A DNA stretch of 61,283 nucleotides, taken from positions 1-61,283 of the IMG/VR virus record IMGVR_UViG_3300033571_013614; one strand, given 5' to 3'. How positions within the stretch are numbered: the first letter of the stretch is position 1; every line of letters starts with the position of its first letter. The translations under genes and the position numbers were made by a program. The notes beneath the pieces were generated by a model that did no database searches, was not told where the DNA came from, and saw only the letters and a program-made list of their open reading frames with translations. The stretch comes from a virus. Of this stretch, positions 1,334-61,109 are shown one piece after another.

Positions 1334-1346
1334 TAACCAATCCTTA

Positions 1347-1373
1347 TGGGTCAGGGGGTTGACTTCTGACCCA
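1347..1373. repeat. Inverted repeat, second copy
   Basis: TGGGTCAG (1347-1354) and CTGACCCA (1366-1373), an 8-bp stem. The stem matches that of the copy at 646-684, again wrapping a TTGACT box. Confidence 0.6.
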
Positions 1374-1387
1374 ATCCATTCCATACT
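1359..1387 (+). promoter_or_regulatory. Early sigma70-like promoter
   Basis: TTGACT (1359-1364), 17-nt spacer, CATACT (1382-1387). Same hexamers and spacing as 659-687. It precedes the ATG at 1409 by 21 nt. Confidence 0.65.
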
Positions 1388-1408
1388 ACGTTTGTTCAAC
1401 ACAGATTC

Positions 1409-1549
1409 ATGACTGACATCACCTGGGTTAACGACATTCCAATGCCCACAATGTTGGAAGAAGATTATCAAGAAACAGAATACAAAGATTATGAAGATTC
1501 TGATTGGTATAATGACCCCAACTGTGTCATGTCTCGCCATCATTATTGA
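1409..1549 (+). CDS. Small acidic hypothetical protein
   Basis: A 46-residue protein very rich in Asp, Glu and Tyr (starts MTDITWVNDIPMPTMLEED, ends SRHHY). It follows an early promoter and is followed after 3 nt by the next small gene. No known family. Confidence 0.6.
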   Translation: MTDITWVNDIPMPTMLEEDYQETEYKDYEDSDWYNDPNCVMSRHHY

Positions 1550-24123: not shown

Positions 24124-27100
24124 ATGCCACAAGAAACTAATTTAAATGTATCTCCATATTTTGATGACTTTGATCCAAACAAAGGATATTATAAAGTACT
24201 TTTTAAACCAGGATTGCCAGTTCAATCTAGGGAATTAACTTCTTTACAATCAATTCTCCAAAATCAAATTGAGCAAGTCGGAACTCATTTGTTTAAGGAA
24301 GGATCTGTAGTAATTCCAGGTCAAATCAATTATAACAATACACTTTTTGCTGTAGAAATTGAGAAGGAATACCTTGGAATACCAATTTCTAGTTATGCAA
24401 TTAACCTTGTTAATGTCTACATTAGAGGTCAATCTTCTAATGTAAAAGCAAAAATTGTTTCCACTGTTGGTCCAGAATATTCTACTAGAGGTTACTACAC
24501 TTTATTTGTTAGTTATGTATCTACTGGTATAGATGGGAAAGAAGTTTTTGATGATAATGAAGTTTTATCTTTGGAATCAAATCTTTCAACTTCGATTATA
24601 AATTTTCAGGCAGGACAAGGATTTGGAATTACTGCAGCAGTTGATTCAACTTCAATAGGTTCTGCAGTATTTTTATCTGAGGGTGTATACTATCTTAGAG
24701 GAACATTTGTAAAAGTATTTCCACAAACATTAATTCTTGATGCACATGGTCAATTTCCAACTTACAGAGTTGGTTTAGAAATATTTGAAGAAATTGTAAC
24801 ATCTGGATTAGATTCAAGTCTTACAGATAATGCTAAAGGATTTAATAATTTCGCAGCTCCTGGCGCAGATAGATTAAAAATAACTGCAGTTTTAACAAAA
24901 AAACCATTAGAATCTGAAAAAAATGAGAATTTTGTTGAACTCTTAGTATTAAGACAAGGTAATATACAACATATTGAAGATAAATCTCAGTATAATGAGT
25001 TAGCACAAGAGTTAGCAAGAAGAACTTACAATGAATCTGGTAATTTTTATGTAAAACCATTTTCTATTACTGCTAGAGAGTCTTTAAATAATAGAAAGGG
25101 CAATAACGGCATATTTTTAAAAGGTCAGTTAACGTACAATAATAATATTCCAGCAGAAGAGTTAGGAACATATAAAATATCTCCAGGAAAAGCTTTTATT
25201 CGGGGATTTGAAGTAGATTCAAGAACTATACATTATTTGGATTTTGAGAAAACAAGAACAACTAAAACTTTAGAAGATCAGGCAGTTAATTATTACACTG
25301 GACCCACATTATCTTTAAATAGGGTTATTGGTGCTCCTAGAATTGGATTTAGTACATCATCAGTAATTAGTTTAAGGAATTCTAGAATAGGCATTACTTC
25401 AACAACTGCTTCGGGAAAAGAAATAGGAGTTGCCAGAGTTTATGATTATGCTTTAGAGTCTGGTTCATATTCGTCTGTTGTCGGTGACCTAAATGAGTGG
25501 GACATCTCATTATATGATATCCAAACATATACTGATTTAACTTTAAATGAACCAATAACATTGAACGTTCCAACTTTTATAGTTGGAAAGTCAAGTGGAG
25601 CAACGGGTCATTTAAAATTTAATACAACTACAGGAATTATTACTGCATACTGCACAAATGGATCTTTTATTAATGGTGAAAAACTAATATTTAATGGTAT
25701 TGATAGTAATAGAATAGTTACCTCTCCTGTAGAGTATAAAATATCTGATGTTAAATCTCTTTATAGTTCTGTTGGGACTGGACAAACATTTAATGGAGAT
25801 ACAAAATTATCTGATATTTTTTCAATTGGTGGAGTTAGCATTTCTGCAAAATCTGGAACTGCTCCAGGAGTATCCACTGTAACTAGTTCTGATATTGATT
25901 TTAGAACCATTGCTAAAGTGGGAGATTTGGTATCATTTAGCAATCCGCTTTTAGGAAGCACAAATGTAAAAACATATGCCAGAATTTCTAGTATTAATAA
26001 CAGTAATTCTATTGTTATTGCTGGGGTAACTACAGTTGCAAATATCAATGATGGTGGTCTTCCAACTTCTTCAATATCGGTCAATAATTTTAGTTTAATT
26101 GGAGCAAATTTAAGATCATCCATAGACAATTCATTATATACACCATTACCTAAAAAATTCATTGCTAATGTCGATCTAACAAAATCCACATTATCAATTA
26201 GAAAGGAATTTAATGTTATTATTACTGCAAATGCAACTAATACAATTCAAGCAGGGTCAAATGAAACCTTTTTACCATTTGATGAAGAAAGATATGTTTT
26301 AATAAATTCTACTGGCGGATTTGAAGAACTAACTGAAGATAAATTTAGATTTAGTAATGGTGGAAAAGAATTAAGAATATTTGGTTTGAATGTTTCTGGT
26401 TCTGCAAGATTAATCGCAACACTTAGTAAAATAAATGTAACCAATAAGGTAAAATCTTTAAACAGAACTGGATCAGTTATTGTTAATAAGTCTATACTTT
26501 CTGCATCTGGAATTGGTTCAACTACTTTAGATGATGGATTAGCATATGGTAGTTTTGGGTACGGATTACGAGTTCAAGACAAAGAAATTTGTTTACTTGA
26601 ACCAGATGTAACTAAAGTGTATGCTGTTTATGAAGCAAATGATACAAATAATCCAACTTTACCTTCTATAAGTTTATTCAATCTTGATGGTCCAACTGGA
26701 AAGGTTGATGATTTTATTGTTGGTGAAGAATTAATAGGAACTACAAGTGGTGCTGTAGCACTTTATGTTGAAAAAGTTGGAACTTCTACTATAGGATTAG
26801 TATATCTAAATGATCTTAGATTTGAAATTGGTGAGGTAATTAGGTCTGAGACTAGTGGAATTTCTGGTTCTATAAATGATTTTGATCCTGGGGATGAAAA
26901 TATTATTGATAGGTTTACTTTGGATTCTGGTCAAAGAGAAACTATTTGTGATTATTCTAGGTTGGTAAGAAAACCAAATACTAAAGAACCAAGAAGAAAG
27001 TTAAGAGTTATATATGAGTCTGCAACTTATAGTGATTCTACAGAAGGAGATATTACAACAGTTTCTTCTTATAACCAATTTAATTATTGTGATTTACCAT

Positions 27101-30100
27101 TAATTAAAAATAATGAAAGATTAACTGATGTACTTGATATACGTCCAAGAGTTCGTAAATTTAATTCAAGTTCAACTAATTATTCTCCATTTGAATTTTC
27201 CTCTAGAGCATTTGAAGATGCAACTAATTCATCTAAAAATATTTTAGCTTCGGATGAATCAATCATCCTTACATATTCACACTATTTGCCAAGAATTGAT
27301 AAACTGTTCTTGAAGATTGATGGTGGATTTCAATTGATTAAAGGAGTTCCTTCCGAAACTCCTTTACCTCCAATTGCTTTAGAAGACTCTCTTGAAGTTG
27401 CTACAATAAATCTGCCGCCTTATATTTGTAGCACAGAAAATGTGCAAGTATCATTAAATGCCCATAAGAGATATAGAATGCAAGATATCTCTTTACTTGA
27501 AGATAGAATTAAAAATTTAGAATATTATACAGCGTTATCAATTTTAGAATCCAAAACAGAATCTTTATTCATTCCTGATGAAAGTGGTCTGACGAGATTT
27601 AAATCTGGAATTTATGTAGATAATTTTAGTGGAACTAAATCTCAACTTAAAATTGGTAAAGTTACCAATAGTATCGATCCTATAAATCTTGAATTGAGAC
27701 CATCTCACTTTACAACATCTATAGATCTTTTAGTTGGTTCAAAATCTCTTCTTGGTATAGGAACAACAGCAAGTCCAACAGCAGATCCTGCTTTTGTAAC
27801 TGATATTATTGGTTCAAATATCAGGAGAACAGGTCAACTTATTACCCTAGATTATGGTGAATTTTTACAATTTGCACAACCTTTTGCAACAAGAGTTGAA
27901 AATGTTACTCCATACCTGGTTGTAACATATACTGGAAATATTCAATTATTCCCATCTTCTGATATTTGGGTAGACCAGGTTAGATTACAATCACTTAGGA
28001 TAGATGTTGATGATTATACACAAACCAGATTACAATTAGAGTATGCTGGATATGATCAACAAACTGGTTTAGGTCCTATTAGATGGGGAGCATGGCAATC
28101 TACTTGGACAGGATCTAGTACATCGACAACTAGCAATACTGTTGTAACTGGTTCTAGTACACAAAATACTGGTAGTGCTTTAGTGACTACAAATCAATTA
28201 CAAACTACAACAGTTGTTACTACAACAAGAACGGGCACAGAAAATAGATCTGGAAGTCAACTTAGAGTTTCTGAGCAAGTACAAACTACAAATGAAGGGG
28301 ATAGAGTTGTAAGTACCTCAACAATTCCATTTATGAGGTCTAGAAATATTGAATTCACTGGTAGGAAATTTAGACCATATACAAGACTCTATGGATTTTT
28401 TGATGGTGAAGATGTAAACAATTTTATTATTCCAAAACTAATTGAAATTAGAATGCTTAGTGGTTCATTTACTGTAGGTGAATTAGTTACTGGAACCATG
28501 ACAACTGGTTCTACAACAGCAACAACAGGTTCTACACCATCTATAAGATTTAGAGTTGCAAACTCTAATCATAAATATGGTCCAATATCAAATCCTACTG
28601 ATATTTTTGTTGCAAGTCCATATGATGAAAGTTATACTATTCCTGCAAATTATTCGAGTTCTAGTATTTTGTTAAATGTCGATACAAGAACTTTGGCAGA
28701 AAATAATCAATCATTATATAGTGGATTTATTCGCACTGGAATGAGGTTGAGAAGTGCTTCAGCTGAAGCAGAAGTTATTTCTGTTAGATTGTTTAGTGAT
28801 AATGTAGGAACTGTTCTTGGTTCATTCTTTATACCAGACCCCAATTTACCTTCAAATCCATCTTTTGAAGTTGGAACAAAAATCTTTAGATTAACATCAC
28901 AGTCTTCAAATAGTTCTTTAGGTGGTTTAACATCAACTTCTGGACAAGAGGCATATTTTGCTTCTGGAACAATTAATAATATGCAAGAAACGATAAGATC
29001 TACAAGAAAACCAAGATTTGATGTCGTTGCTTCAAGCGAAAGTAGACCTGCTACTGATGTTCAATCAACAACTACAGTTAGTAACGCTACTACCCAAAGT
29101 ATTACGCCACTTCCACCACCCCCACCACCTCCACCACCATCTCCATCACCACCACCACCAACACCTCAAGTTAGTTTCCCAGGAACTCCAGTTACACCTA
29201 GACCACCCACGCCGCCACCACCACCGCCACCACCACCGCCACCACCACCGCCAAGAAATCCACCCGATCCCCCAAGACCAAGGGGTGGAAAAGATCCTCT
29301 TGCACAATCATTTACAGTTAATGATGAGGCTGGAGCATTCATTACGGGAGTAGATCTTTATTTCAGAACTAAAGACCCATTACTGCCAGTAACTGTTCAG
29401 TTGCGTCCTATGGTTAATGGAGTTCCTTCTGACCAAATATATCCTTTTGGAGAAGCAGTTGTAGAATCTGATGATGTTATTGAAACATTTGACGCTACTA
29501 GACCAACTAGGGTTAATTTCCCATCACCAGTATATCTGCATACAAATACAGATCATGCTGTCGTATTGCTGTCAAATTCAAACGAATACACAGTTTGGAT
29601 TTCAAGAATGGGAGAGACTGATGTTTCTACATTACTTCAACCAGAATCTAGACAAGTTATTGTTTCTGCTCAACCATATTTGGGGTCATTATTTAAATCT
29701 CAAAATGGATCATCATGGACACCAAGCCAATATGAAGATTTAAAGTTTAATCTTTATTCAGCATCGTTTATAGAAGAATCAGGAACAGTATCATTCTATA
29801 ATCCAGAATTAAATACTGGTAATAAGCAAATTGCAACCTTAGTTAAGGACGCTTTGGAATTTGATGCTAAAAAACTTATTATTAGCACAAATAATATTAT
29901 CAACACATCTCCATTAGTTCTTGGAAATACTATTATTCAACAAAATACTACTGCTAGAGGTGATTATGTTGGTGTAGGAGGATCTGCAACTGGTTCATTA
30001 GTTATTATTAATGCTGGTATTGGTTATACTCCATCGAATGGTACATCATTCACATTTAATAACGTACCGCTAAGTTCTTTTAGTGGAAATGGTAAAAATG

Positions 30101-31779
30101 CTACTGCAGATATTACCATTGGACAGGCAAGTGGTGTAAATGGAGTTGCTCTTGCAGCAACAATACGAGACGGTGGATATGGGTATCAAATTGGAGACGT
30201 GTTGACAGTTCCTTCAATTGGAAATGATTCTTTAGGTAGAAATCTTCAATTGTCTTTATCAAATGTTGTTGGAGCAAATCAATTAATACTCGATAATGTT
30301 CAGGGAGAATTTGAAATTAATGCTTCTAAACCATTACAATATATAAGTCCTACCACAGGAATAACTACAATATTAAATGCTACTGGGTCAAACTCTGTTA
30401 TAAACGATTTTGAATTAGCATCTCTTTCTGAAGATGGTTTACATATTAAAATAAATCATAAGAATCATGCTATGCACTCTACAACAAACGTTGTTAGAAT
30501 TAGTGGCGTTAAAGGAGATTCTAAACCAACAGTATTAACTGCTGATTATAATAATTCTGACTCTGGTCCGATTAGTATTGCAAATACTACTGGATTTGAA
30601 GTATTTGAAAATGTATCAATTGGTGCCACAAATCCAGGATATGCACTTTTGGATAATGAAATTATTTCATATACTGGTGTTGCAAATGGTCAACTAATTG
30701 GTATTACAAGATCTGTTGAGGGAACTGGAGCATTCAGTTATCCAAACAGAACTAGTATTCAAAAATATGAAAACAATGGCATTTCATTAAGAAGAATCAA
30801 TAAACTCCATTATTTACAAGACGCTTTAGTTGAAAGACCAGTAGACCTTGATAGTTATTATATTAGAATTAACACAAGTGAAAATGGAATAGATAGAAGT
30901 TCTGGGTCTTCCTTCCCTAAACTTTATATTAATTCATCAAAGTCTAGTGGTGGAGATGCTATTCAAGCAACACAAAATATACAATATGAAACTGTAAATC
31001 CAATAGTTCAAACTATGGTTTTACCTGGAACATCAGTTAAGGCAACTTTAAAAGGAATTACTGGTACAAGTGTTGATGGTAATGAAATCTCATTTGTGGA
31101 AACAGAGGCAACTCCAATTAATTTAAGTGAGGATACATATTTACCAGAACCAAGAATAATTGCATCTAGAGTCAATGAATTAACTCAAACAACTAATTTC
31201 CCAGGAAATAAGTCAATGGAGTTAACATTTACATTATCAACTTCAAATCCAAAAATCTCTCCTGTCATTGACCTTGATAGAATTGGTATGGTTCTTATAT
31301 CAAATAGAATTGATAGCCAAATAACAGATTATATAAATGACCCTAGAGTTTCCTCTATTACAGAAGATCCATCAGCATTCATATATGCAAATAAACCAGT
31401 TGAATTGGAAAATGCAGCTACTTCAATAAAAGTTATATTTGCTGCATATGTTAACACATACAATGATGTAAGAGTACTCTATTCAATTAGTAATGATCCA
31501 TCTGTTGAACCAATTTATTATCCATTCCCTGGATATGATAATTTAGATACTAATGGAAATATTATTAATGTGGGTCAAAATAGTGGTAAACCAGATAAAA
31601 ATGTACCAAAAACCGACATTTTATCTGCAGATTCTGCAAACTTGGTATTTAGAGATTATGAATTTAGTATTGATGGATTACCAGAATTTAGATACTTTAG
31701 TATTAAAATAATTGGTTCTTCAACAAATCAAGCATATCCTCCAAGAATTAAAGATTTAAGAGTAATTGCACTTGCATAA
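24124..31779 (+). CDS. Large DUF4815-type baseplate/tail fibre protein
   Basis: A 2551-residue virion protein. The N-terminus (NLNVSPYFDDFDPNKGYYKV, FKPGLPVQSRELTSLQSIL) is the DUF4815 type found in cyanophage baseplates. A proline run at about 1662-1722 links it to a C-terminal part starting GGKDPLAQSFTV, which repeats in other cyanophage tail proteins. Near residues 2145-2210 there is an LDNEI beta module like those in gp7 and gp15. It takes the slot of T4 gp9-gp12 and may combine connector and fibre roles; that is inferred from position. Confidence 0.75.
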   Translation: MPQETNLNVSPYFDDFDPNKGYYKVLFKPGLPVQSRELTSLQSILQNQIEQVGTHLFKEGSVVIPGQINYNNTLFAVEIEKEYLGIPISSYAINLVNVYIRGQSSNVKAKIVSTVGPEYSTRGYYTLFVSYVSTGIDGKEVFDDNEVLSLESNLSTSIINFQAGQGFGITAAVDSTSIGSAVFLSEGVYYLRGTFVKVFPQTLILDAHGQFPTYRVGLEIFEEIVTSGLDSSLTDNAKGFNNFAAPGADRLKITAVLTKKPLESEKNENFVELLVLRQGNIQHIEDKSQYNELAQELARRTYNESGNFYVKPFSITARESLNNRKGNNGIFLKGQLTYNNNIPAEELGTYKISPGKAFIRGFEVDSRTIHYLDFEKTRTTKTLEDQAVNYYTGPTLSLNRVIGAPRIGFSTSSVISLRNSRIGITSTTASGKEIGVARVYDYALESGSYSSVVGDLNEWDISLYDIQTYTDLTLNEPITLNVPTFIVGKSSGATGHLKFNTTTGIITAYCTNGSFINGEKLIFNGIDSNRIVTSPVEYKISDVKSLYSSVGTGQTFNGDTKLSDIFSIGGVSISAKSGTAPGVSTVTSSDIDFRTIAKVGDLVSFSNPLLGSTNVKTYARISSINNSNSIVIAGVTTVANINDGGLPTSSISVNNFSLIGANLRSSIDNSLYTPLPKKFIANVDLTKSTLSIRKEFNVIITANATNTIQAGSNETFLPFDEERYVLINSTGGFEELTEDKFRFSNGGKELRIFGLNVSGSARLIATLSKINVTNKVKSLNRTGSVIVNKSILSASGIGSTTLDDGLAYGSFGYGLRVQDKEICLLEPDVTKVYAVYEANDTNNPTLPSISLFNLDGPTGKVDDFIVGEELIGTTSGAVALYVEKVGTSTIGLVYLNDLRFEIGEVIRSETSGISGSINDFDPGDENIIDRFTLDSGQRETICDYSRLVRKPNTKEPRRKLRVIYESATYSDSTEGDITTVSSYNQFNYCDLPLIKNNERLTDVLDIRPRVRKFNSSSTNYSPFEFSSRAFEDATNSSKNILASDESIILTYSHYLPRIDKLFLKIDGGFQLIKGVPSETPLPPIALEDSLEVATINLPPYICSTENVQVSLNAHKRYRMQDISLLEDRIKNLEYYTALSILESKTESLFIPDESGLTRFKSGIYVDNFSGTKSQLKIGKVTNSIDPINLELRPSHFTTSIDLLVGSKSLLGIGTTASPTADPAFVTDIIGSNIRRTGQLITLDYGEFLQFAQPFATRVENVTPYLVVTYTGNIQLFPSSDIWVDQVRLQSLRIDVDDYTQTRLQLEYAGYDQQTGLGPIRWGAWQSTWTGSSTSTTSNTVVTGSSTQNTGSALVTTNQLQTTTVVTTTRTGTENRSGSQLRVSEQVQTTNEGDRVVSTSTIPFMRSRNIEFTGRKFRPYTRLYGFFDGEDVNNFIIPKLIEIRMLSGSFTVGELVTGTMTTGSTTATTGSTPSIRFRVANSNHKYGPISNPTDIFVASPYDESYTIPANYSSSSILLNVDTRTLAENNQSLYSGFIRTGMRLRSASAEAEVISVRLFSDNVGTVLGSFFIPDPNLPSNPSFEVGTKIFRLTSQSSNSSLGGLTSTSGQEAYFASGTINNMQETIRSTRKPRFDVVASSESRPATDVQSTTTVSNATTQSITPLPPPPPPPPPSPSPPPPTPQVSFPGTPVTPRPPTPPPPPPPPPPPPPPRNPPDPPRPRGGKDPLAQSFTVNDEAGAFITGVDLYFRTKDPLLPVTVQLRPMVNGVPSDQIYPFGEAVVESDDVIETFDATRPTRVNFPSPVYLHTNTDHAVVLLSNSNEYTVWISRMGETDVSTLLQPESRQVIVSAQPYLGSLFKSQNGSSWTPSQYEDLKFNLYSASFIEESGTVSFYNPELNTGNKQIATLVKDALEFDAKKLIISTNNIINTSPLVLGNTIIQQNTTARGDYVGVGGSATGSLVIINAGIGYTPSNGTSFTFNNVPLSSFSGNGKNATADITIGQASGVNGVALAATIRDGGYGYQIGDVLTVPSIGNDSLGRNLQLSLSNVVGANQLILDNVQGEFEINASKPLQYISPTTGITTILNATGSNSVINDFELASLSEDGLHIKINHKNHAMHSTTNVVRISGVKGDSKPTVLTADYNNSDSGPISIANTTGFEVFENVSIGATNPGYALLDNEIISYTGVANGQLIGITRSVEGTGAFSYPNRTSIQKYENNGISLRRINKLHYLQDALVERPVDLDSYYIRINTSENGIDRSSGSSFPKLYINSSKSSGGDAIQATQNIQYETVNPIVQTMVLPGTSVKATLKGITGTSVDGNEISFVETEATPINLSEDTYLPEPRIIASRVNELTQTTNFPGNKSMELTFTLSTSNPKISPVIDLDRIGMVLISNRIDSQITDYINDPRVSSITEDPSAFIYANKPVELENAATSIKVIFAAYVNTYNDVRVLYSISNDPSVEPIYYPFPGYDNLDTNGNIINVGQNSGKPDKNVPKTDILSADSANLVFRDYEFSIDGLPEFRYFSIKIIGSSTNQAYPPRIKDLRVIALA
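29107..29290 (+). repeat. Poly-proline codon run
   Basis: Near-continuous CCA/CCG/CCC/CCT codons encode two proline runs (longest 14) separated by a short TPQVSFPGTPVTPRP linker. A stiff extended hinge between the two halves of the DUF4815-type protein is expected. The codon mix differs between the two runs: CCA-led first, CCA/CCG mixed second. Confidence 0.85.
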
Positions 31780-44730: not shown

Positions 44731-45393
44731 ATGAATCGTTATCATAGATTTTTGGATATTAGGGACTATATCCCTAATATTGATACATCAAAGTATCAAA
44801 CTGAAGGTATGAGATGGCCAGAGTTTCATAAACAACTTCAATTTGAAGACCTGGGTAATGATAAAATTTTACCCTGGTTGAATAGTTTAGGATTTACATC
44901 ACACTGGATAGAATTTTTTTACACTCCACCACATGATGATGGCGTTATACATTCTGATAATGTTTATTATGCTGATTGGGCAAAACTAATATTTCAATTT
45001 GGTGCAAAAGGAAGCACCATGAGATGGTGGACATCGGATATGGTTTTAAGAGTAAGTACCAGTGCTGAACAAGTTTATTCAACAGTTATACCAGAACGTA
45101 ATCAATATAGTGTTGGAGATAGAACTGATGATCATTATCATGGACAAGTTTTAGTCAGTAGAGAAGAATACTGTAAAAAAGAATATGAGGTAGAGATAGG
45201 CACATGTGGATTAGTGAATGTTGGTCCATTACATAGTTCACATAATCCAACAGATGATAAAAGATTTACAGTAACTATTGCTTTAATTGACAAGGATAAA
45301 GATTATGAACATCGTATTTTGTGGGATGAGGCATTGCAAGCATTCAAACCTTACATAATTGATTCTTCAATAGACCTTTGCGCCGCAAAATAA
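44731..45393 (+). CDS. Fe(II)/2-oxoglutarate-dependent oxygenase-like protein
   Basis: A 220-residue cupin-fold protein similar to aspartyl/asparaginyl or prolyl hydroxylase-type enzymes. The iron triad can be read as His74 and Asp76 (VIHSDN) with His168 or His171 (GPLHSSH), and Arg178 (RFTVTIAL) fits the 2-oxoglutarate carboxylate. It would hydroxylate a peptide, lipid or sugar; the substrate is unknown. It directly follows gp20, so it shares the late transcript. Its last 50 nt overlap the 3' end of the convergent radical SAM gene. It is not a T4 core gene, so it is an accessory insertion. Confidence 0.75.
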   Translation: MNRYHRFLDIRDYIPNIDTSKYQTEGMRWPEFHKQLQFEDLGNDKILPWLNSLGFTSHWIEFFYTPPHDDGVIHSDNVYYADWAKLIFQFGAKGSTMRWWTSDMVLRVSTSAEQVYSTVIPERNQYSVGDRTDDHYHGQVLVSREEYCKKEYEVEIGTCGLVNVGPLHSSHNPTDDKRFTVTIALIDKDKDYEHRILWDEALQAFKPYIIDSSIDLCAAK

Positions 45394-47110
45394 ACACAGT
45401 ATGAGGATCATTCTTATCAAATGATTTGAATTCAGTATCAACTTTATATTTACTATCAGAGCATTCAAGATAGAACGGATAATTTGTGTTCTCATCAAAA
45501 ATGAATGCTCTTTGTAGTTTTAATATGTCAGATTCTATTGGGAAAAATATTTTACTAACATCTTCTGTCATTTTAAAAATAGACTCTTTATTATTGAACA
45601 TAAAAGCAAAACTTCCTGCATGTAGTGTATGTCCATGCTTTCCTGTATCTAATATTTTTCCAGTTTTCATGTAATGACTTACTGATTTTTCAATTTCTCT
45701 GTAGTGTTCACCAATAACTCCAGAGTCATTTTTAACATAATCAAATAGAGAATCATAAAATTTTCTATAAGTAATGTTTAGATTATTAAAAAAGTGCTTT
45801 GCAATTAGTTGAGTATACCCAGCAATATGAAACTGCACTATTAACCAACCATACATGTATGCTTCAATAAGTTCAGCATTACTCATTGTATTTGTTTCCG
45901 ATATTAATTCAATAACTTCTTTGATATCATACTCATCATTACTGAATGACATATAATCTTCCGCTTTAATAGTTTTAATACCAAAGACTTCTCTAGAAGT
46001 TGTGCTATTCAATTCAGTATCACCAAACATTTGACAGAACCAAACATCAATAGATTCGTGTTGTCCACACTCAAGAATTTTTGAGAATCCTTCTTTCCAA
46101 CTATCTAAAGTTTCATCTGGAAGACCAAGAATAAGTTCAGTATATGTTTTTACTCCATATTTTTTACTTTTCTCAATTTGTTCTGAGATTTTATTGATGC
46201 TCATATTTTTACGCTTAATTGACTTAAGGGTTGGTTCATTCATAGTTTGAACACTTAAAGTTACGCCTCTACTAATATCTCCAAGTATTTGAGCAATCTC
46301 AAAAATAACTTCGGTAGAATTTTTTGAATATTGAACGTTGATTGCTTCTAGTTTACCTTCGTCTGCTGCCTTTCTAAACAACTTTGCAATCTCAACATCA
46401 CGTTCTTTGAACATGCCAAAGTTTGCATCAGCATTAAAAATAAATCCAACGTTATTTTTTGCTGCCCATTCAATATCTTCTTTAACTCTTGTAATATCAA
46501 AATGCTTTACTTTTTGATATGTCATTCCACCCCAATCACAATAAGTACATCTATGAGGACAACCGCGATTTGTTTCAATGGTCATTGACCATAAAATATT
46601 TGGATTTTGTTTAATAATTTTGTCAAAGATTCCCATTTGATATGGACTTGGAAAATCTAAATTTTCAATTCTCTGTTTTACATATAATCTCTCAAATGAT
46701 TCTTTATTTGCAATTTTTCTGAGAAGATCTAAAAATGCTTCTTCACCTTCAGATACTATAATACAATCTATAAAATCATATTCTAATAATTTACGGGTTG
46801 CCTGAGGACCACCAAATTCAATAATACAATCTGGATATTTTTGTTTGATTAGTTTAGCAACATGTAAATTGTATTGTTCGTTCCAAATATAACAACTAAA
46901 TGCACATATTGCTGGATTATCTAATCTATCCAGTAGTTCTTTTGGATTTTCTCGCTTATAAATTAAATCTTTTAATTTATATTCTTTATCAATATCTTCA
47001 AATTGAGTACAATATGCCCATAAACAACCTACGCTATATGGTAACCAATAAGTGTCTTCATTTCTAACTTCAACCGCATATTGTGGTTGAAACATATAAA
47101 GGTTTTTCAT
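45344..47110 (-). CDS. Radical SAM protein with B12-binding-like N-terminus, copy 2
   Basis: A 588-residue protein. N-terminal part (about 1-135) has a cobalamin-binding-like fold (FQPQYAVEVR, LPYSVGCLW, CIIEFGGPQAT), but no DxHxxG motif, as in base-off types. The radical SAM core has Cys184, Cys188, Cys191 (NRGCPHRCTYCDWGG) for the 4Fe-4S cluster and ELILGLPDET as a SAM-binding strand. A long C-terminal part (about 400-588) has no family known to me. It would do a difficult methylation or another radical reaction; the substrate is unknown. Start overlaps the upstream gene by 4 nt. It runs against the surrounding genes and overlaps the oxygenase gene tail by 50 nt. Confidence 0.8.
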   Translation of the reverse strand: MKNLYMFQPQYAVEVRNEDTYWLPYSVGCLWAYCTQFEDIDKEYKLKDLIYKRENPKELLDRLDNPAICAFSCYIWNEQYNLHVAKLIKQKYPDCIIEFGGPQATRKLLEYDFIDCIIVSEGEEAFLDLLRKIANKESFERLYVKQRIENLDFPSPYQMGIFDKIIKQNPNILWSMTIETNRGCPHRCTYCDWGGMTYQKVKHFDITRVKEDIEWAAKNNVGFIFNADANFGMFKERDVEIAKLFRKAADEGKLEAINVQYSKNSTEVIFEIAQILGDISRGVTLSVQTMNEPTLKSIKRKNMSINKISEQIEKSKKYGVKTYTELILGLPDETLDSWKEGFSKILECGQHESIDVWFCQMFGDTELNSTTSREVFGIKTIKAEDYMSFSNDEYDIKEVIELISETNTMSNAELIEAYMYGWLIVQFHIAGYTQLIAKHFFNNLNITYRKFYDSLFDYVKNDSGVIGEHYREIEKSVSHYMKTGKILDTGKHGHTLHAGSFAFMFNNKESIFKMTEDVSKIFFPIESDILKLQRAFIFDENTNYPFYLECSDSKYKVDTEFKSFDKNDPHTVFILRRKGLLKNQLCKV

Positions 47111-48906
47111 AATTTTATAATAGTATTTTTATCTAATCTTTTACGTTTTAGTAACCACATATTATACCTTTCACTTTCTTCTCTTGCGTTACAAATACTG
47201 TAATTAGTATCACAATCTTCCCAAGTATCCAAATCAAAAGATAGATTTAATTTAATTGGATATTCTTGATCTGGATTATATACAAATTCTTTTTGCATGG
47301 TAAAAATAGATTCTTCAACTTCCCAACATTTGTAAATTAAATTAAATGTATGTTCTTTATTTTCCCAAAATAGATTGTAATCTGTTGCCATAGACATTTC
47401 TAGCGCATGACCTGTACTGCCTATGACTTTTCCAGTAGTCATATAATTGTATATTTTATCATACAGATTTTTATAGTGTTGTCCAAATATTATAGGATCA
47501 TTTTTTATACTATCAAATAATTTATCATAAAATTGTCTATAAGAAATATTTTTTTTATTACGATAATATTTTGAGATTATTTGAGAGTAACCATTTATGT
47601 GAAATTGAACAATCATCCAACTATAGAGATATGCTTCGATCAAATCTTTAGTTGGCATAGTATTTGTTGCTTTAATAATTTCTACCGTCTCTTTTATCTC
47701 AACACAATCTTTTGTATTTGTAAAAGAGACATAATCTTCCGCATGTACAGTTTCAATACCATAAACTTCTCTAGATAAGGCACTATTTAATTCAGTATTA
47801 CCAAAAACTTGACAAAACCATATGTCAATAGATTCATGTTGTCCACACTCAAGTAGTGTGCAAAGTCCTTCTTTCCAAGATTCTAAAGTTTCATCAGGAA
47901 GACCAAGAATAAGTTCAGAATATGTACGAACTCCCCATTTCTTTGCAAGTTCCATATGACCTTTTAAATCTTTAATGTGAAGATTTTTTCTCTTAATTGC
48001 TTTAAGAGTTGGTTCATTCATACTCTGGACACTTACAGTAACCCCACGTCTTGCAAATTCTCCCATTTCTTTTGTAATCTCAAAAACAATTTCATTTGAA
48101 TTTTTAGAATACTGAAGAACAATATCTTCTATTTTACTATTTTTATGATCTCCTGCTTCTTTTAACATTTTAGCAATTTCTAAGTCACGCTCAGCAAATA
48201 TACCAAAATTTGCATCAGTCATCATTAAGAATGCAACGTTATTATCACGAGCCCAATTAATATCATCTTGAACTCTTTGCAAATTAAATTTGGTAATTTT
48301 ACTCATAGTTGTACCACCCCAATCACAATAGGTACATCTATGGGGACATCCTCTATTAGATTCAATAACAGTTGCCCATAATGTATCTGGATTCTCAGAA
48401 ACTATTTTGTCAAATAATCCTGATTGATATGGACTTGGGAAGTCTAAGTCAGATATTCTACCCCTTTCATACACACTGGTTATTTTTTCTCCCAATGTAA
48501 GAGACCTAAGTAATTCTAAAAAGTTAACTTCACCATCACCACCAAGCATAATACAATCAATAAAATCATTATCTTCCAACATTTTTTTTGTTGCTTGGGG
48601 TCCACCAAATTCAATAATACAATTTGGATATTTTTTCTTAATTAACTCTGCGATTGTTAGACAATACTTCTCATTCCAAATGTAACAACTAAATGCACAT
48701 AAAAAAGGATTATCTAAACGATTCAATAATTTATCGGGATCTTCTCTTCTAAAAATAATATCTTTTAATTCATAGTTATTATTAATATCATCAAATTGAC
48801 TACAATAACTCCATAAACAAGCAACACTATATGGTAACCAATAATTATCTTCTTTTCTTACTTCAACAGAATACTGAGGTTGAAACAGATATACATTATT
48901 TTTCAT
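47107..48906 (-). CDS. Radical SAM protein with B12-binding-like N-terminus, copy 1
   Basis: A 599-residue paralogue of the next gene in the same operon. Same order: FQPQYSVEVRKED, LPYSVACLWSYC, CIIEFGGPQAT, then Cys187, Cys191, Cys194 (NRGCPHRCTYCDWGG) and SELILGLPDETLESWKEG. No DxHxxG, so any cobalamin would be bound base-off. The C-terminal region (about 415-599) is partly alike (YSWMIVQFHINGYSQIISKY against YGWLIVQFHIAGYTQLIAKH). The two look like an old tandem duplication and may act on successive positions of one substrate or form a heterodimer; inference. It overlaps the GT25-like gene by 11 nt. Confidence 0.8.
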   Translation of the reverse strand: MKNNVYLFQPQYSVEVRKEDNYWLPYSVACLWSYCSQFDDINNNYELKDIIFRREDPDKLLNRLDNPFLCAFSCYIWNEKYCLTIAELIKKKYPNCIIEFGGPQATKKMLEDNDFIDCIMLGGDGEVNFLELLRSLTLGEKITSVYERGRISDLDFPSPYQSGLFDKIVSENPDTLWATVIESNRGCPHRCTYCDWGGTTMSKITKFNLQRVQDDINWARDNNVAFLMMTDANFGIFAERDLEIAKMLKEAGDHKNSKIEDIVLQYSKNSNEIVFEITKEMGEFARRGVTVSVQSMNEPTLKAIKRKNLHIKDLKGHMELAKKWGVRTYSELILGLPDETLESWKEGLCTLLECGQHESIDIWFCQVFGNTELNSALSREVYGIETVHAEDYVSFTNTKDCVEIKETVEIIKATNTMPTKDLIEAYLYSWMIVQFHINGYSQIISKYYRNKKNISYRQFYDKLFDSIKNDPIIFGQHYKNLYDKIYNYMTTGKVIGSTGHALEMSMATDYNLFWENKEHTFNLIYKCWEVEESIFTMQKEFVYNPDQEYPIKLNLSFDLDTWEDCDTNYSICNAREESERYNMWLLKRKRLDKNTIIKL

Positions 48907-49837
48907 ACTTTAGTCTTTCTGTCAAAGATTTATCGTAAAAATATTTATCGTCCCATCTACTAATATCTCTCTCCATTAATATATCATTATTTTTCCCAAA
49001 AGTAAAAAATTCATCTAAACTAAATTTATCCTTATCATTCTTCCACCATTCGTGATATGCCTCATGGCATTTTACAAAACTCATTTTGGGTTGCCAATTT
49101 AATTCACCAAATGGACCTTGATGACTTATTCCAGCAAAATATGGATTAATTGGAATTAAAGGTAGTGAGTAACATTTTCCAGATTGATTAATAAAATAAT
49201 CTGGACCCCCAGATGTGTCGGAATAGTCCTTATTGTCATGTATTCCAGAATCTCTATTAAGGTAAATTGAGTTGGCAATTTTATAATCAAATTTATATTT
49301 TCCATTCAAGATATGTAAATCTAAAAGTTTTTCAACATACTCTCTTTTCATAAGACATGCTCCTAAAGAGTATTCTTTTTGAGTTGGATGTAAATAAAAT
49401 CGAACTTTATAAGGACATTCATATCCCAATTGAATACAATCCCAATCATATGGAAGACGTTCCATAAATTGATCCCAAGTAAAATGCCATGATTTAATCA
49501 ATGATAAATCATAATCATCTTCCATAAAAACAAAATAAGGATCTTTTGTAGAATTAATCCACTCTTGTAAAAAATCTAAAATTAAGGATGAGTACCAGTT
49601 TATCCATTGAGACGTTGAGGGTTTATAATTACCGATTAAATTATTTAAAAATTGTTTTGGGGGACCATCTTTGGGACAAGATAACATTTCAATCCTGGAA
49701 TAATTTAATCCAAATAAATTAAATTGGTCCTCCATGTATTTTTTTCTATCTTTTTTTCTATCAACATTTGTATAATATATGTGTGGAAAATTTTTTAATT
49801 TATCACAACCCATAATCAAATATATTTTACCCGTCAT
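48896..49837 (-). CDS. GT25-like glycosyltransferase
   Basis: A 313-residue protein. IYYTNVDRKKDRKKYMEDQF and VFMEDDYDLS (EDD at 106-108) are the two hallmarks of GT25 (LPS or collagen-type galactosyltransferase) enzymes, with LGACLMKREYVEKLL between them and the C-terminal part. It leads the minus-strand operon that continues with two radical SAM genes. ATG at 49837 is the longest start, but a late box at 49839-49846 on the same strand would start transcription inside it; the ATG at 49813 is then likelier (305 residues). A role in surface glycan or hydroxylated-residue glycosylation fits its neighbours. Confidence 0.75.
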   Translation of the reverse strand: MTGKIYLIMGCDKLKNFPHIYYTNVDRKKDRKKYMEDQFNLFGLNYSRIEMLSCPKDGPPKQFLNNLIGNYKPSTSQWINWYSSLILDFLQEWINSTKDPYFVFMEDDYDLSLIKSWHFTWDQFMERLPYDWDCIQLGYECPYKVRFYLHPTQKEYSLGACLMKREYVEKLLDLHILNGKYKFDYKIANSIYLNRDSGIHDNKDYSDTSGGPDYFINQSGKCYSLPLIPINPYFAGISHQGPFGELNWQPKMSFVKCHEAYHEWWKNDKDKFSLDEFFTFGKNNDILMERDISRWDDKYFYDKSLTERLKYEK

Positions 49838-49838
49838 A

Positions 49839-49846
49839 TATTTATT
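49839..49846 (-). promoter_or_regulatory. Possible late promoter for the minus-strand operon
   Basis: On the minus strand this reads AATAAATA, a near-T4 late box. It touches the + strand CTAAATA at 49847-49853, so the two promoters are back-to-back. Confidence 0.5.
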
Positions 49847-49853
49847 CTAAATA
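49847..49853 (+). promoter_or_regulatory. Late promoter for the head assembly block
   Basis: CTAAATA with continuation CTAG, just 12 nt before the ATG at 49866. The leader would be very short. Confidence 0.6.
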
Positions 49854-49865
49854 CTAGAGTAATTC

Positions 49866-50039
49866 ATGAGAATATCAATGGAAGAACTTCTAGATATGAT
49901 TGTTGGTGATGAAGCACCATCTACAATTTCTGATAAGATTAAAGATTTGCTCTACACTCGCTCAGCAGAAAAAATCGAAGTGTTGAGACCATCTGTTTCA
50001 AATTCAATGTTTGATTCTATTGCTCCAGATGCAGAATAA
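49866..50039 (+). CDS. Small prohead-core candidate in the gp67 position
   Basis: A 57-residue protein (starts MRISMEELLDMIVGDEAPS). It stands where T4 has gp67, between the portal and gp21, and like gp67 is short and helical, but without its long acidic tail. EKIEVLRPSVSNSMFDSI may be a processing region. An internal ATG (49878) is an alternative start given the promoter. The role is inferred from position. Confidence 0.55.
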   Translation: MRISMEELLDMIVGDEAPSTISDKIKDLLYTRSAEKIEVLRPSVSNSMFDSIAPDAE

Positions 50040-50047
50040 TAAACATC

Positions 50048-50063
50048 AATAAATAACTAAATA
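50048..50063 (+). promoter_or_regulatory. Tandem late boxes
   Basis: AATAAATA (50048-50055) and CTAAATA (50057-50063) in tandem, 14 nt before the ATG at 50078. Confidence 0.6.
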
Positions 50064-50077
50064 GTCTGTTTATAATA

Positions 50078-50353
50078 ATGTCAACACGAATTAAAGTTCT
50101 TGGGCAGGAATCTGCTCTTCCAACTACAACGGGAGCGGCGACTAGCTTTAGTGAGGCAACGGTTGTTCGTTTAGTTAATAGTTCAACCTCCGCAGATTAT
50201 GCAGTCACAGTTGTTGAAACTCAAAGTGGGTCTGTTATTGGATCATTTACTTTGATGAGAACAACTTCAGAGTTGTTGGAAAAGTTACCAACACATTGCG
50301 TTTATGCAACAAACGCATCTGTTTTAGGCGCAAAAGTAGGATTTACAAATTAA
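50078..50353 (+). CDS. Small conserved virion-region protein
   Basis: A 91-residue protein rich in Ser and Thr, beta-type (starts MSTRIKVLGQESALPTTTGA; ends LGAKVGFTN). It takes the gp68 slot but does not look like a helical core protein; a decoration or structural protein is more likely. Two late boxes precede it, indicating strong late expression. Function unassigned. Confidence 0.7.
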   Translation: MSTRIKVLGQESALPTTTGAATSFSEATVVRLVNSSTSADYAVTVVETQSGSVIGSFTLMRTTSELLEKLPTHCVYATNASVLGAKVGFTN

Positions 50354-50357
50354 ACCA

Positions 50358-51011
50358 ATGAAACTCATCAGAGAAGAAATCGAAAAGGTTGAAGTTATCA
50401 CCGAGAGTGTTGGTGGTAAAAAACAAATGTATATCTCAGGAGTATTCCTCCAAAGCGAAATGGTAAATCGCAATGGTAGAATGTATCCTTTCTCTATCAT
50501 GGAAAGAGAAGTAAAGAGATATACTAATGATTATGTTAATAAAGGTAGAGCACTTGGGGAGTTAGGACACCCAGATGGTCCCACCGTAAATCTCGATAGA
50601 GTTTCTCATAAGATTACTGAACTTAAGCAAGACGGTAATAATTTTATTGGTAAAGCACAAATCCTACATACCCCAATGGGTAAGATTGCTGAAGCACTTC
50701 TTAAAGACGGAGTAACTCTCGGCGTTTCTTCTCGTGGTATTGGTTCTTTAAGAGAAAATATTAAAGGTGGTTATAAAGAAGTTGGTGAAGACTTCATGCT
50801 TGCAACTGCAGCAGATATTGTTGCCGATCCTTCTGCCCCTGATGCTTTTGTTCAGGGAATTATGGAAGGTAAGGAGTGGATTTGGGATGGTGGAATTCTT
50901 CGTGAAAAGATTGCAAACCAAACCAGACAAAGAATTGAAAATCTTTCTAGAAGAAGAGAATTAGAAGAACATAAGTTAAACTTATTCAATGACTTTTTGA
51001 ATTCCCTTTGA
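50358..51011 (+). CDS. gp21: Prohead core protease gp21
   Basis: A 217-residue serine protease (T4 is 212) that processes the scaffold and capsid during maturation. His71 in LGELGHPDGPTV and Ser124 or Ser125 in LGVSSRGIGS are the catalytic segments, and an Asp lies in ADIVADPSAPDA. The C-terminal basic helix (RQRIENLSRRRELEE) is likely a self-cleaved or targeting piece. Start 4 nt after the preceding stop. Confidence 0.94.
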   Translation: MKLIREEIEKVEVITESVGGKKQMYISGVFLQSEMVNRNGRMYPFSIMEREVKRYTNDYVNKGRALGELGHPDGPTVNLDRVSHKITELKQDGNNFIGKAQILHTPMGKIAEALLKDGVTLGVSSRGIGSLRENIKGGYKEVGEDFMLATAADIVADPSAPDAFVQGIMEGKEWIWDGGILREKIANQTRQRIENLSRRRELEEHKLNLFNDFLNSL

Positions 51012-58670: not shown

Positions 58671-60369
58671 AAAAATTCGCTATAAAAACTTTTTAAGTAC
58701 TGGTAATCAATTTACTGAAATTGACCTAGCAAAGTCACCCACCACTTTAATTATTGGTAACAATGGATCTGGAAAAAGTACGATCCTTGATGCCTTGACT
58801 TTTTCTTTGTTTGGAAAATCTTTTAGGGGCGTTAACAAACCACAATTAATTAATTCTGTAAATGAAAAAGATTGTTTGGTTGAAATTGAATTTAAAATAG
58901 GAACTAATGCTTGGAAGATTGTTAGGGGTCTTAAACCTACGATTTTTGAAATTTATAAAAATGGCGAACTTTTAAATCAAGAAGCTGCTAGTAAAGACCA
59001 GCAAACTTGGTTGGAAAGTATTGTTCTAAAAATGAACTATAAGTCTTTTACTCAAATTGTTATTTTGGGTAGTAGCAATTTTGTTCCTTTTATGCAGTTG
59101 GCAGCAGCAACTAGAAGAGAGGTCATTGAAGACCTTTTGGATATTAAAATCTTTTCATCAATGAATTCTGTCTTAAAGGATAGAGTTAAAACGTGTAGAG
59201 ATGAAATTAAAAATTTGGAATATAAAAGAGAATCTATTCAAGATAAACTTAACATGCAAAAAAGTTTTATCGAACAGATTGAAAATATTGGAAAGAAAGA
59301 TATTGAAAATAAAAATAATGTAATTAAAAATATAAGAGAAGAAAATGAAAAATTGCTGACTGACTCTCTTACTTTAGAAGATTCTTTAGTTAAAAAACAA
59401 GAGCAATTAGTTGAATTTTCTGGTGCAAATGATAAGTTGCGTAAACTTGGCAATTTAAAGGGAAAGTTATCTCAAAAAATAACAACTGTAATAGAAGACC
59501 ACAAGTTCTTTACTAGTAATACGGTTTGCCCAACTTGTACTCAATCTATTGAAGAGGATTTTAGGATAAATAAAATTAGTGACGCCCAAAATAGAGCAAA
59601 AGAGTTGCAGTCTGGTTACAAAGAACTGGAGGAGGCAATTAAAGAGGAGGAAGATCGAGAGCGTCACTTTACTTCACTATCTAAAGAGGTAACTAACCTA
59701 ACGCATGAAATTTCTCAAATCAATACTAAGATCTCTGGATATCAAAGACAAATCGGAGACCTTGAACAAGAAATTCAAACTATTACCAATCAACTTAAAA
59801 ACCGAAATACTGAACACGAAAAATTAAAAGAGTTAGAAGATCAACACGAAGAATTGAGTAAAGAGACTGATTCTAAAAAAGATCTTTTAATTAACTATAA
59901 TTTTGTATCAGACTTATTAAAAGATGGTGGAGTAAAAACTCAAATCATTAAAAAGTATTTGCCAGTAATTAATACACAGGTAAACAAATACTTACAGATG
60001 ATGGAGTTTTTTATTAACTTTAAACTTGACGAAGAATTTAATGAATCTATTGAATCTCCAATTCATGATGATTTTTCCTACACTTCTTTTAGTGAAGGGG
60101 AAAGAATGAGAATTGATTTAGCTTTACTTTTTACTTGGAGAGAAATTGCAAAAATTAAAAATTCTTTGAATTGTAATTTAATTATATTTGATGAGACTTT
60201 TGACTCGTCTTTGGATACCTTTGGTACGGATGAATTTATGAAAATCATTCGTTATGTTATTAAAGATGCAAATACTTTTGTAATCTCTCACAAAGAAGGT
60301 ATGAGGGATAAATTTTCTGAAGTTTTAAAATTTGAAAAAATTAAAGGATTTAGTAAAGTATCATTATGA
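58657..60369 (+). CDS. gp46: Recombination ATPase gp46
   Basis: A 570-residue Rad50/SbcC-family ATPase (T4 is 560). Walker A GNNGSGKS (34-41), a long coiled coil with the zinc hook CPTC (Cys291 and Cys294), signature SFSEGERMRIDLAL, and Walker B LIIFDET (Asp512, Glu513). With gp47 it processes ends for recombination-dependent replication. Overlaps the epimerase gene by 4 nt. Confidence 0.94.
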   Translation: MILFEKIRYKNFLSTGNQFTEIDLAKSPTTLIIGNNGSGKSTILDALTFSLFGKSFRGVNKPQLINSVNEKDCLVEIEFKIGTNAWKIVRGLKPTIFEIYKNGELLNQEAASKDQQTWLESIVLKMNYKSFTQIVILGSSNFVPFMQLAAATRREVIEDLLDIKIFSSMNSVLKDRVKTCRDEIKNLEYKRESIQDKLNMQKSFIEQIENIGKKDIENKNNVIKNIREENEKLLTDSLTLEDSLVKKQEQLVEFSGANDKLRKLGNLKGKLSQKITTVIEDHKFFTSNTVCPTCTQSIEEDFRINKISDAQNRAKELQSGYKELEEAIKEEEDRERHFTSLSKEVTNLTHEISQINTKISGYQRQIGDLEQEIQTITNQLKNRNTEHEKLKELEDQHEELSKETDSKKDLLINYNFVSDLLKDGGVKTQIIKKYLPVINTQVNKYLQMMEFFINFKLDEEFNESIESPIHDDFSYTSFSEGERMRIDLALLFTWREIAKIKNSLNCNLIIFDETFDSSLDTFGTDEFMKIIRYVIKDANTFVISHKEGMRDKFSEVLKFEKIKGFSKVSL

Positions 60370-61109
60370 AAGTTTTAATTACTGGGCATAGGGGATTTAT
60401 AGGAAGGAATGTGTTTGCTGATTGGCAAACTACTCATAATCATTTAGTTGTGGGAATGGATTTTCCATATGATATTGAGAATTTTGTTGAAGATAATTAT
60501 GATTTAGTCATTCATCTTGCAGCGTTTGCAAATATCAGAGAGAGTCTAGAAAATCCACAAAAGTTTTATGAGAATAATGTAGTAAAATCTAAAAAACTTT
60601 TTGACTGGTGTAGAGAAACAAATACTAGACTTTTATATGCGTCTTCAAGTGCAGTAGAAGAAGATTATTGGGAGAATCCTTATGCGATGACAAAATGGAT
60701 TAATGAACAAATGGCACCTCCAAATTCAGTTGGGATGAGGTTTACTACAGTTTATGGTCCAGATAGTCGTTCTGATATGATGTATAGAATGCTTGAAGAT
60801 AAAACTGCAACCTATGTTACCAATCATAAACGAGATTGGATTCATGTTAAAGATGTTTGTCGAGCAATTCGTTATCTTGTCAGTAGTTCTATCTGTGGTC
60901 CAGTTCCTGTTGGGTCTGGTAAATCTGTTTATGTTAAAGACTTGGCAGAAAAAATGGGAATGGGTCACCTACCAGTTAGAGAACTGACCCCAGGGGAAAG
61001 ACAAGACAACGTGGCAGATACTACAATCCTAACTAGTATTGGATGGTTTCCAACCATTAACGTTCTGGATACAATCAATGAACACCCCAAATTGGCAACA
61101 TCACTCTAA
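60366..61109 (+). CDS. NAD-dependent sugar-nucleotide epimerase/dehydratase
   Basis: A 247-residue short-chain dehydrogenase of the extended (GalE/WcaG) type. NAD site GHRGFIG (7-13), LAAFANIRESLENP, catalytic YAMTK (Tyr106, Lys110) with Ser93-95 before it, and a RDWIHVKDVCRAI segment. It lacks some of the usual C-terminus (typical 310-340), so it may be a short phage form. It would supply an activated sugar for phage glycosylation, and two glycosyltransferases are encoded in the window. Last gene before the terminator at 61181. Confidence 0.85.
   Translation: MKVLITGHRGFIGRNVFADWQTTHNHLVVGMDFPYDIENFVEDNYDLVIHLAAFANIRESLENPQKFYENNVVKSKKLFDWCRETNTRLLYASSSAVEEDYWENPYAMTKWINEQMAPPNSVGMRFTTVYGPDSRSDMMYRMLEDKTATYVTNHKRDWIHVKDVCRAIRYLVSSSICGPVPVGSGKSVYVKDLAEKMGMGHLPVRELTPGERQDNVADTTILTSIGWFPTINVLDTINEHPKLATSL

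What the first reader, a model, noticed from the sequence alone, without database searches (positions are those of the whole stretch)
44731..49837. Minus-strand radical SAM/GT25 cassette with convergent oxygenase inside the late virion module
Seen: between gp20 and the prohead block lie a Fe(II)/2OG oxygenase-like gene (+), then two paralogous radical SAM genes and a GT25-like gene on minus with 4-nt and 11-nt overlaps. Every other confident gene in the window is on +. Known: cobalamin-type radical SAM enzymes methylate unreactive carbons or build ring systems, GT25 enzymes glycosylate surface sugars or hydroxylysine, and 2OG oxygenases hydroxylate peptides. Inference: the four could form a late pathway that hydroxylates, radically modifies and glycosylates one phage or host target, perhaps a virion protein or a surface glycan. 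I know of no described phage system of this make-up.
Basis: partly seen in the sequence, partly recalled or inferred. Interest (0 to 1): 0.82.

Follow-up and report, generated by a model that had tools for sequence, protein, structure and literature searches.

The report
Swappable phage modification-enzyme gene cassette
Uncultured viruses related to those of marine cyanobacteria carry, beside their capsid genes, a conserved and apparently late-expressed set of enzymes (two predicted vitamin-B12 radical methylases, a sugar transferase and a probable hydroxylase), whose most variable members are exchanged between otherwise nearly identical viruses, as expected if they set the chemistry of an exposed viral or host surface.

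Summary
In detail: all four ORFs, strands and overlaps check. The genes form a conserved locus, not a chance neighbourhood: 31 of 31 testable oxygenase (OX) contigs have a convergent radical SAM (RS) gene, and 57 of 62 testable RSd contigs have gp20 beyond it. Both RS proteins are relatives of the B12-dependent methylase TokK (E 4e-71, 1e-73), with its cobalt-facing Trp76 and CxxxCxxC invariant in 14 of 14 aligned homologues. OX has an HxD...H/R signature and a 2OG-oxygenase-like but not decisive model; the GT model is nearest mimivirus R655 and COLGALT1. A cyanophage-type late element precedes the minus operon in 26 of 36 upstream regions (shuffles: mean 3.8, max 11). New here: the cassette is swapped. 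Two contig pairs, 98.7% identical over 38 kb and 97.4% over 46 kb outside it, differ mainly in RSd-RSu-GT (plus a 91-aa gene), or in RSu-GT alone. Best reading: a late, allele-exchanging surface-decoration cassette, virion more likely than host envelope. Substrate and timing are inferred. No close relative of OX or the RS proteins was found in 50,697 phage records.

The parts
44731..45393 (+). OX: 220-aa 2OG/Fe(II)-oxygenase-like protein
   Evidence: H74, D76, H168, N172, R178 invariant in 17 aligned sequences, including a 26% relative; AF2 mean pLDDT 82.3; the 50 VIA rows shown are 2OG-type oxygenases by title or recall, best Z only 8.0; no Pfam, PHROG or NCBIfam hit
45344..47110 (-). RSd: class-1 B12 radical SAM protein, the more constant paralogue
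   Evidence: TokK 4.4e-71, CysS 1e-38; C184/C188/C191 and W76 invariant in 14 of 14; short-branched group
47107..48906 (-). RSu: class-1 B12 radical SAM protein, the variable, exchanged paralogue
   Evidence: TokK 1.4e-73; several deep types in the same slot; swapped in near-identical phages
48896..49837 (-). GT: GT25-like glycosyltransferase; likely true start at 49813
   Evidence: phrog_2835 2.8e-33; EDDYD with E106, D107, D108, D110 invariant; AF2 mean pLDDT 81.6; nearest folds mimivirus R655 and COLGALT1, E 1e-7 to 8e-7, TM about 0.45
49839..49845 (-). late-promoter-like ATAAATA for the minus operon
   Evidence: NATAAATA is the late motif reported for S-PM2 (PMC2984593, passage read)
49847..49853 (+). 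CTAAATA element, back to back, upstream of the 57-aa gene
   Evidence: its reading as a promoter is inference
49866..50039 (+). 57-aa conserved mini-gene, a 98-99% island inside the swapped block of the window/G001 pair
   Evidence: relatives of 60-74 aa in other contigs
50078..50353 (+). 91-aa protein, phrog_19805, swapped together with the cassette in the window/G001 pair
   Evidence: homologues in 24 cyanophage or marine virus records

Best explanation
A late-expressed, allele-exchanging surface-decoration cassette. Shown by sequence: two TokK/CysS-like B12 radical SAM proteins, a GT25-like transferase and a 2OG-oxygenase-like protein in a conserved block between the portal (gp20) and prohead protease (gp21) genes; a late-promoter-like element of its own on the minus strand; replacement of RSu+GT (or RSd+RSu+GT) in otherwise nearly identical phages, with OX, gp20 and gp21 unchanged. 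Inferred: the RS enzymes use SAM and host-made (pseudo)cobalamin (recalled, not tested) to put methyl groups on unactivated carbons of a sugar or side chain; OX hydroxylates; GT adds the sugar; RSu and GT set the chemical type while OX and RSd do common steps. Most likely the product is carried on the outside of the virion (head), because the promoter type and position are those of virion genes and the same slot holds virion protein genes in related phages.
For: Conserved locus. TokK/CysS relationship with catalytic residues. Purifying selection in close pairs. Late element in 26 of 36 upstream regions. Slot: among 79 gp21 loci, 10 carry RS genes and others carry c1, c2, c7 or the 91-aa family; a c1 protein (L171) matches phrog_1645 'virion structural protein' (1.7e-147) and lies one small gene beyond RSd-RSu there; S-SCSM1 annotates two proteins in the slot as 'virion protein'. 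Exchange: window/G001 98.7% over 38,362 columns outside the block, tail genes included, against 50-88% in the divergent 200-bp bins inside; G009/G007 97.4% over 46,356 columns outside against 60% inside, the block being RSu+GT. Glycan context: G002 and G007 hold 6 and 5 tandem GT25-like genes with DegT-like and amidinotransferase-like genes; in G007 Pfam also confirms sulfotransferase, 2OG-oxygenase and UDP-sugar dehydrogenase neighbours; in L139 an RSd homologue lies beside DegT, amidinotransferase-like and epimerase genes, with a remote OX homologue (26%, 52 bits) about 5 kb away.
Against: No virion proteomics, transcripts or substrate at hand. No protein gene is an obligate partner: the 91-aa gene is absent beside the cassette in many contigs. 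OX is lacking in 14 of 64 and GT in 14 of 43 testable contigs. Sugar genes near cellular relatives are no commoner than near other radical SAM genes: 9 of 32 against 11 of 48. The glycan cluster of G002 and G007 is not adjacent to the cassette. TokK and CysS act on antibiotic precursors. GT25 enzymes are often LPS enzymes (recalled). A minus-strand operon could also act on the host.
Confidence: 0.42

Rival explanations
1. Host-envelope modification: the cassette changes the LPS or other surface glycan of the infected cell with C-methylated, hydroxylated sugars and so excludes competing phages. It works like seroconversion gtr clusters, with constant and type-specific genes.
For: GT25-like enzyme; tandem GT25-like arrays in G002 and G007, and GDP-sugar epimerase and GT11 genes in G007; constant/variable make-up like gtrA/gtrB against gtr(type) (start of the abstract of PMC3259042 in the listing); allele exchange while tail genes stay 98-99% identical. 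PMC7029224 proposes host-surface change for GTs of pelagimyophages (passages).
Against: Late-type element and virion-gene position; none of the four ORFs matches a flippase or membrane GT family.
Confidence: 0.3
2. Peptide maturation: the RS enzymes modify a small phage-encoded peptide (RiPP-like).
For: In five GT-less variants the first minus gene is a 51-115 aa ORF with a YPGPF...SDNDDxIAH motif and otherwise variable ends (L116, L118, L119, L122, L124); some B12 radical SAM families mature peptides (NCBIfam names).
Against: No such ORF found in the window or in GT-containing variants; the L118 ORF has no phage or Pfam match.
Confidence: 0.1
3. Small diffusible metabolite: an antibiotic- or signal-like compound made during infection, as for TokK and CysS.
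For: Closest characterised relatives are antibiotic enzymes.
Against: Carrier-protein domain PF00550 found in 0 of 6 records searched, G002 of 246 kb included (the other five are fragments); late head-gene position.
Confidence: 0.07
4. DNA base hypermodification (oxygenase, radical SAM and GT acting on bases) against restriction.
For: Such enzyme classes are known or predicted in phage base modification (recalled); restriction could drive allele exchange.
Against: Late-type promoter element; thymidylate synthase/hydroxymethylase family PF00303 found in 0 of 6 records (five are fragments).
Confidence: 0.05

Closest known systems
TokK and CysS, class-1 cobalamin-dependent radical SAM methylases
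   Same: CxxxCxxC, N-terminal B12-type region, Trp76 at the same residue number as TokK, colinear with TokK over about 450 residues
   Different: Phage-borne, paired paralogues with a GT and an oxygenase-like gene; no antibiotic pathway seen; substrate unknown
KedN5 family, NCBIfam NF033712
   Same: Best NCBIfam model for both proteins (190 and 157 bits)
   Different: Far below its cut-off of 700 bits: not a member
gtr seroconversion clusters of Shigella phages
   Same: Constant genes plus an exchangeable type gene; phage-borne; glycosyltransferase (start of abstract)
   Different: No match to flippase or membrane GT families; radical methylases and an oxygenase-like protein instead; T4-like phage
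g15-g18 hyperplastic region of cyanomyoviruses (PMC2984593, passage)
   Same: Insertion site inside the structural module
   Different: Different site (gp20-gp21) and cargo; whole alleles exchanged
S-SCSM2R glycan-type cluster (PQ898602)
   Same: GT25, radical SAM, 2OG oxygenases, DegT-like and amidinotransferase together
   Different: No head genes in the stretch shown; its radical SAM is annotated SkfB/NifB/PqqE-type, not TokK-type

Membership tests
Class-1 cobalamin-dependent radical SAM methylase (TokK/CysS) | CxxxCxxC cluster motif | tested here: met
   invariant in 14 of 14
Class-1 cobalamin-dependent radical SAM methylase (TokK/CysS) | N-terminal cobalamin-binding region with Trp under cobalt | tested here: met
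   W76 aligned with TokK Trp76 and invariant in 14 of 14; the Pfam B12 model alone is below its cut-off
Class-1 cobalamin-dependent radical SAM methylase (TokK/CysS) | methyl transfer to carbon | not testable with these tools
   needs enzymology
KedN5 subfamily NF033712 | curated score of 700 bits | tested here: not met
   190 and 157 bits
2OG/Fe(II) oxygenase | HxD...H triad and 2OG-binding Arg | tested here: met
   invariant in 17 of 17 aligned sequences; the roles are recalled
2OG/Fe(II) oxygenase | double-stranded beta-helix fold | tested here: inconclusive
   VIA rows shown are 2OG-type oxygenases but Z is at most 8.0; Foldseek mixes 2OG enzymes with other cupins and sugar epimerases, query TM 0.25-0.36 for the top oxygenase rows
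Glycosyltransferase family 25 | family profile | tested here: inconclusive
   phrog_2835 met; no Pfam hit at E up to 1; a relative in G007 hits PF01755 below cut-off
Glycosyltransferase family 25 | fold like COLGALT1 | tested here: met
   Foldseek E 4e-7, probability 1.00, though query TM only 0.45
gtr seroconversion cassette | gtrA flippase, gtrB, membrane gtr(type) | tested here: not met
   none of the four ORFs matches such families; works like, is not one
gtr seroconversion cassette | constant plus exchangeable type genes | tested here: met

The most novel reading that the evidence does not exclude
Cyanophages run a radical-chemistry 'chemotype' system on their own particles: B12 radical methylases plus a GT write a methyl-branched, hydroxylated decoration on the virion, and recombination swaps the writer genes (RSu+GT) as one module, so that phages with nearly the same tail genes present different coats. 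To my knowledge this would be the first virus-encoded B12-dependent radical modification of a virus.
Probability: 0.3. Interest if true: 0.92.

Novelty: new variant of a known kind. Interest (0 to 1): 0.74.

Why it matters
It makes a concrete, testable case for radical C-methylation in virus biology, an enzyme chemistry that I know from natural-product and cofactor pathways. The natural swap pairs single out the variable enzymes (RSu, GT) and the more constant ones (OX, RSd). If the decoration is on virions or host envelopes it would show a fast-changing chemical layer of the phage-host interaction that varies independently of the tail genes, and it would tie the fitness of these phages to host cobalamin.

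Tried and rejected
Cellular neighbours as a guide to substrate: sugar-gene neighbours of TokK-like cellular relatives looked suggestive one by one, but a crude count gave 9 of 32 against 11 of 48 for other radical SAM loci, so I do not use it as evidence.

Collagen/hydroxylysine target: no run of five or more G-X-Y in window ORFs. CobS-type phage B12 gene: PF12556 found in 0 of 6 records. The defence-candidate model PDC-M51A hits both RS proteins (6e-29, 2e-21), which I read as general radical SAM similarity. The 91-aa protein as obligate substrate: swapped with the cassette in one pair but absent from the slot in many contigs. ORFs of about 475 aa in place of gp23 in L103/L105 are probably antisense picks of my greedy gene caller (not followed up). 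Counts are per contig within one query call; the RSd counts are ascertained on RSd, which is why OX contigs were counted apart, where 4 of 35 were too short to test. The OX-gp20 count was 27 of 32; in the two of the five misses that I looked at (L056, L060) gp20 is there with a 4-nt overlap.

Limits: the promoter test used mononucleotide shuffles, its 36 regions are distinct but not independent, and 10 lack the element, several because another minus gene precedes. dN/dS between swapped alleles is higher (window/L089: RSu 0.27, GT 0.44, with dS near or above 1). The 23 near-identical pairs are not independent. RS structures were not predicted (both jobs went to OX and GT). The RS tree was a quick search with SH-aLRT only and long cellular branches; the RSd group including L171 has 92, not starred. 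The sulfotransferase, 2OG and UDP-sugar dehydrogenase genes of the G002 cluster were judged from likeness to G007, not tested with Pfam. Where the contigs were sampled was not looked up.
Full report
What is there. The window is a 61,283-base virus record of IMG/VR with T4-type virion genes; its portal protein is 76% identical to that of Synechococcus phage S-SM2. Of the related contigs, the 246-kb G002 carries two PF00124 (psbA/psbD family) genes, so at least one cassette carrier is a cyanophage; the other 13 of 14 records searched, mostly fragments and the window among them, had none.

Not chance. In IMG/VR, scans with RSu, GT, OX and RSd gave 11, 33, 35 and 71 loci. Of the 33 GT loci only 2 have an RS gene in the stretch fetched; the other 31 are more distant GT25-like genes (38% identity or less). 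All 11 RSu loci show other genes of this locus. OX contigs: 31 of 31 testable have a convergent RS gene (4 of 35 were too short). RSd contigs: RSu upstream in 50 of 58, GT upstream in 29 of 43, OX convergent in 50 of 64, gp20 in 57 of 62, gp21 in 31 of 36; the five contigs L126, L137, L139, L140 and L147 account for all gp20 and gp21 misses and lie in other genomic contexts. Among 50,697 phage records OX has no match, RSu one and RSd three, all distant (21-24%) and from faecal phage records. Six isolates looked at carry other, + strand genes in the gp20-gp21 gap.

What the proteins are. RSd and RSu match TokK (phmmer 4.4e-71 and 1.4e-73) and CysS in the PDB set; a profile of 14 phage homologues gives TokK 9.8e-110. 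Cysteines 184/188/191 and Trp76 are invariant in the 14. TokK places Trp76 under the cobalt (passage in PMC13331322). They fall far below the KedN5 subfamily cut-off. OX has no family hit, but H74, D76, H168 and R178 are invariant down to a 26% relative, and its model (pLDDT 82) resembles 2OG oxygenases, with Z at most 8.0, which the tool calls middling, and with other cupins mixed into the Foldseek list. GT: phrog_2835; model nearest mimivirus R655 and human COLGALT1. In the three close pairs (window/L081, L102/L128, L083/L097) dN/dS of the cassette genes runs from 0.04 to 0.12, the highest being the swapped GT of L102/L128; between the swapped alleles of window/L089 it is 0.11 (RSd), 0.27 (RSu) and 0.44 (GT).

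Timing. NATAAATA is the late motif reported for S-PM2 and found in cyanophage genomes (passage in PMC2984593). The window has ATAAATA at 49845-49839 on the minus strand, about 30 nt before the likely GT start, a spacing seen at other late genes of the window. In 36 distinct upstream regions 26 have it at -75 to -20 of the conserved start; 200 mononucleotide shuffles give mean 3.8, maximum 11. Late expression is therefore inferred, not measured.

Exchange of alleles. Window against G001 (43,340 bases): 98.7% over 38,362 columns outside 45400-50400, tail genes included; only five other 200-bp bins fall below 95%, none below 90%; inside, the divergent bins have 50-88%. The change begins at the OX 3' end; the 57-aa gene is a 98-99% island; the 91-aa gene is swapped too; identity is restored at gp21. 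G009 against G007: 97.4% over 46,356 columns outside, 60% inside a 2.6-kb block that is RSu+GT; three other bins fall below 85% besides one at the block's edge. Of 23 pairs with gp20 and gp21 at 93% or more, 17 have RSu in both; 2 of these have RSu under 60% and 4 more, all involving L102, have GT at 70% with RSu at 96%; the pairs are not independent. In three contigs (L093, L094, L129) RSu is absent, while a relative (L092) has it. The tree gives one phage clade with a short-branched RSd group and an RSu group of several deep types. So OX is constant in both pairs, RSd in one, and RSu and GT are the variable part.

What it may do. G002 and G007 hold tandem GT25-like genes with DegT-like and amidinotransferase-like genes; in G007 Pfam confirms DegT, sulfotransferase, 2OG-oxygenase and UDP-sugar dehydrogenase neighbours and, elsewhere, epimerase and GT11 genes. 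An RSd homologue in L139 lies beside DegT, amidinotransferase-like and epimerase genes. That favours a glycan-type product, though G002 and G007 carry these away from the cassette and the cellular neighbourhoods did not help. Virion against host surface: position and promoter type, and slot-mates that are virion proteins, favour the virion; GT25 habits and the gtr-like make-up favour the host envelope. I give 0.42 and 0.30. Peptide, metabolite and DNA readings are ranked lower for the reasons given under rivals.

Known or new. Searches for cyanophage or phage plus radical SAM plus GT or B12 listed six different papers; in the passages that I read of each none describes such a cassette. PMC7029224 and PMC7150976 mention radical SAM genes and GTs in marine phages without this make-up. 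The library is open-access only. I file it as a new variant of phage surface-modification cassettes: the chemistry and the modular swap are new to me, the purpose probably is not.

Noticed in passing
L116:6086-6241, L118:3261-3608, L119:3587-3787, L122:2098-2253, L124:6116-6271: Small ORF (51-115 aa) with a YPGPF...SDNDDxIAH motif as first gene of the minus operon in GT-less variants; possible peptide substrate.
   Followed up: partly
L083:3839-5428; L081:2-442: A third RS-type gene (or its end) upstream of the GT in some contigs: the operon can hold three.
   Followed up: partly
L319:9859-18822; L321:8664-17809: Second glycan-type cluster beside genes that look like T4-type replication genes: 5-6 tandem GT25-like genes with half-size DegT, amidinotransferase-like and UDP-sugar dehydrogenase-like genes (a sulfotransferase family hit in L319).
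   Followed up: partly
window 50078-50353: The 91-aa protein of the virion gene slot is only about 41% identical in the otherwise near-identical G001 phage.
   Followed up: partly
window 848-1543 (-): Second minus-strand gene candidate with partial homologues in four Synechococcus phage records.
   Followed up: partly
window whole: ATAAATA occurs 19 times against 38 expected from dinucleotide shuffles, as if kept out except at promoters.
   Followed up: no
L147:7974-9797 and 13016-14929: Two TokK-like RS genes in a contig of another genomic context; L137 and L126 carry one each.
   Followed up: partly
window 60366-61109: NAD-dependent epimerase/dehydratase-like gene at the window's end (PF01370 3e-24).
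   Followed up: no
window 9633-22496 and 24124-31779: Giant genes of 4287 and 2551 aa among the tail genes; the second matches phrog_358 of unknown function.
   Followed up: no
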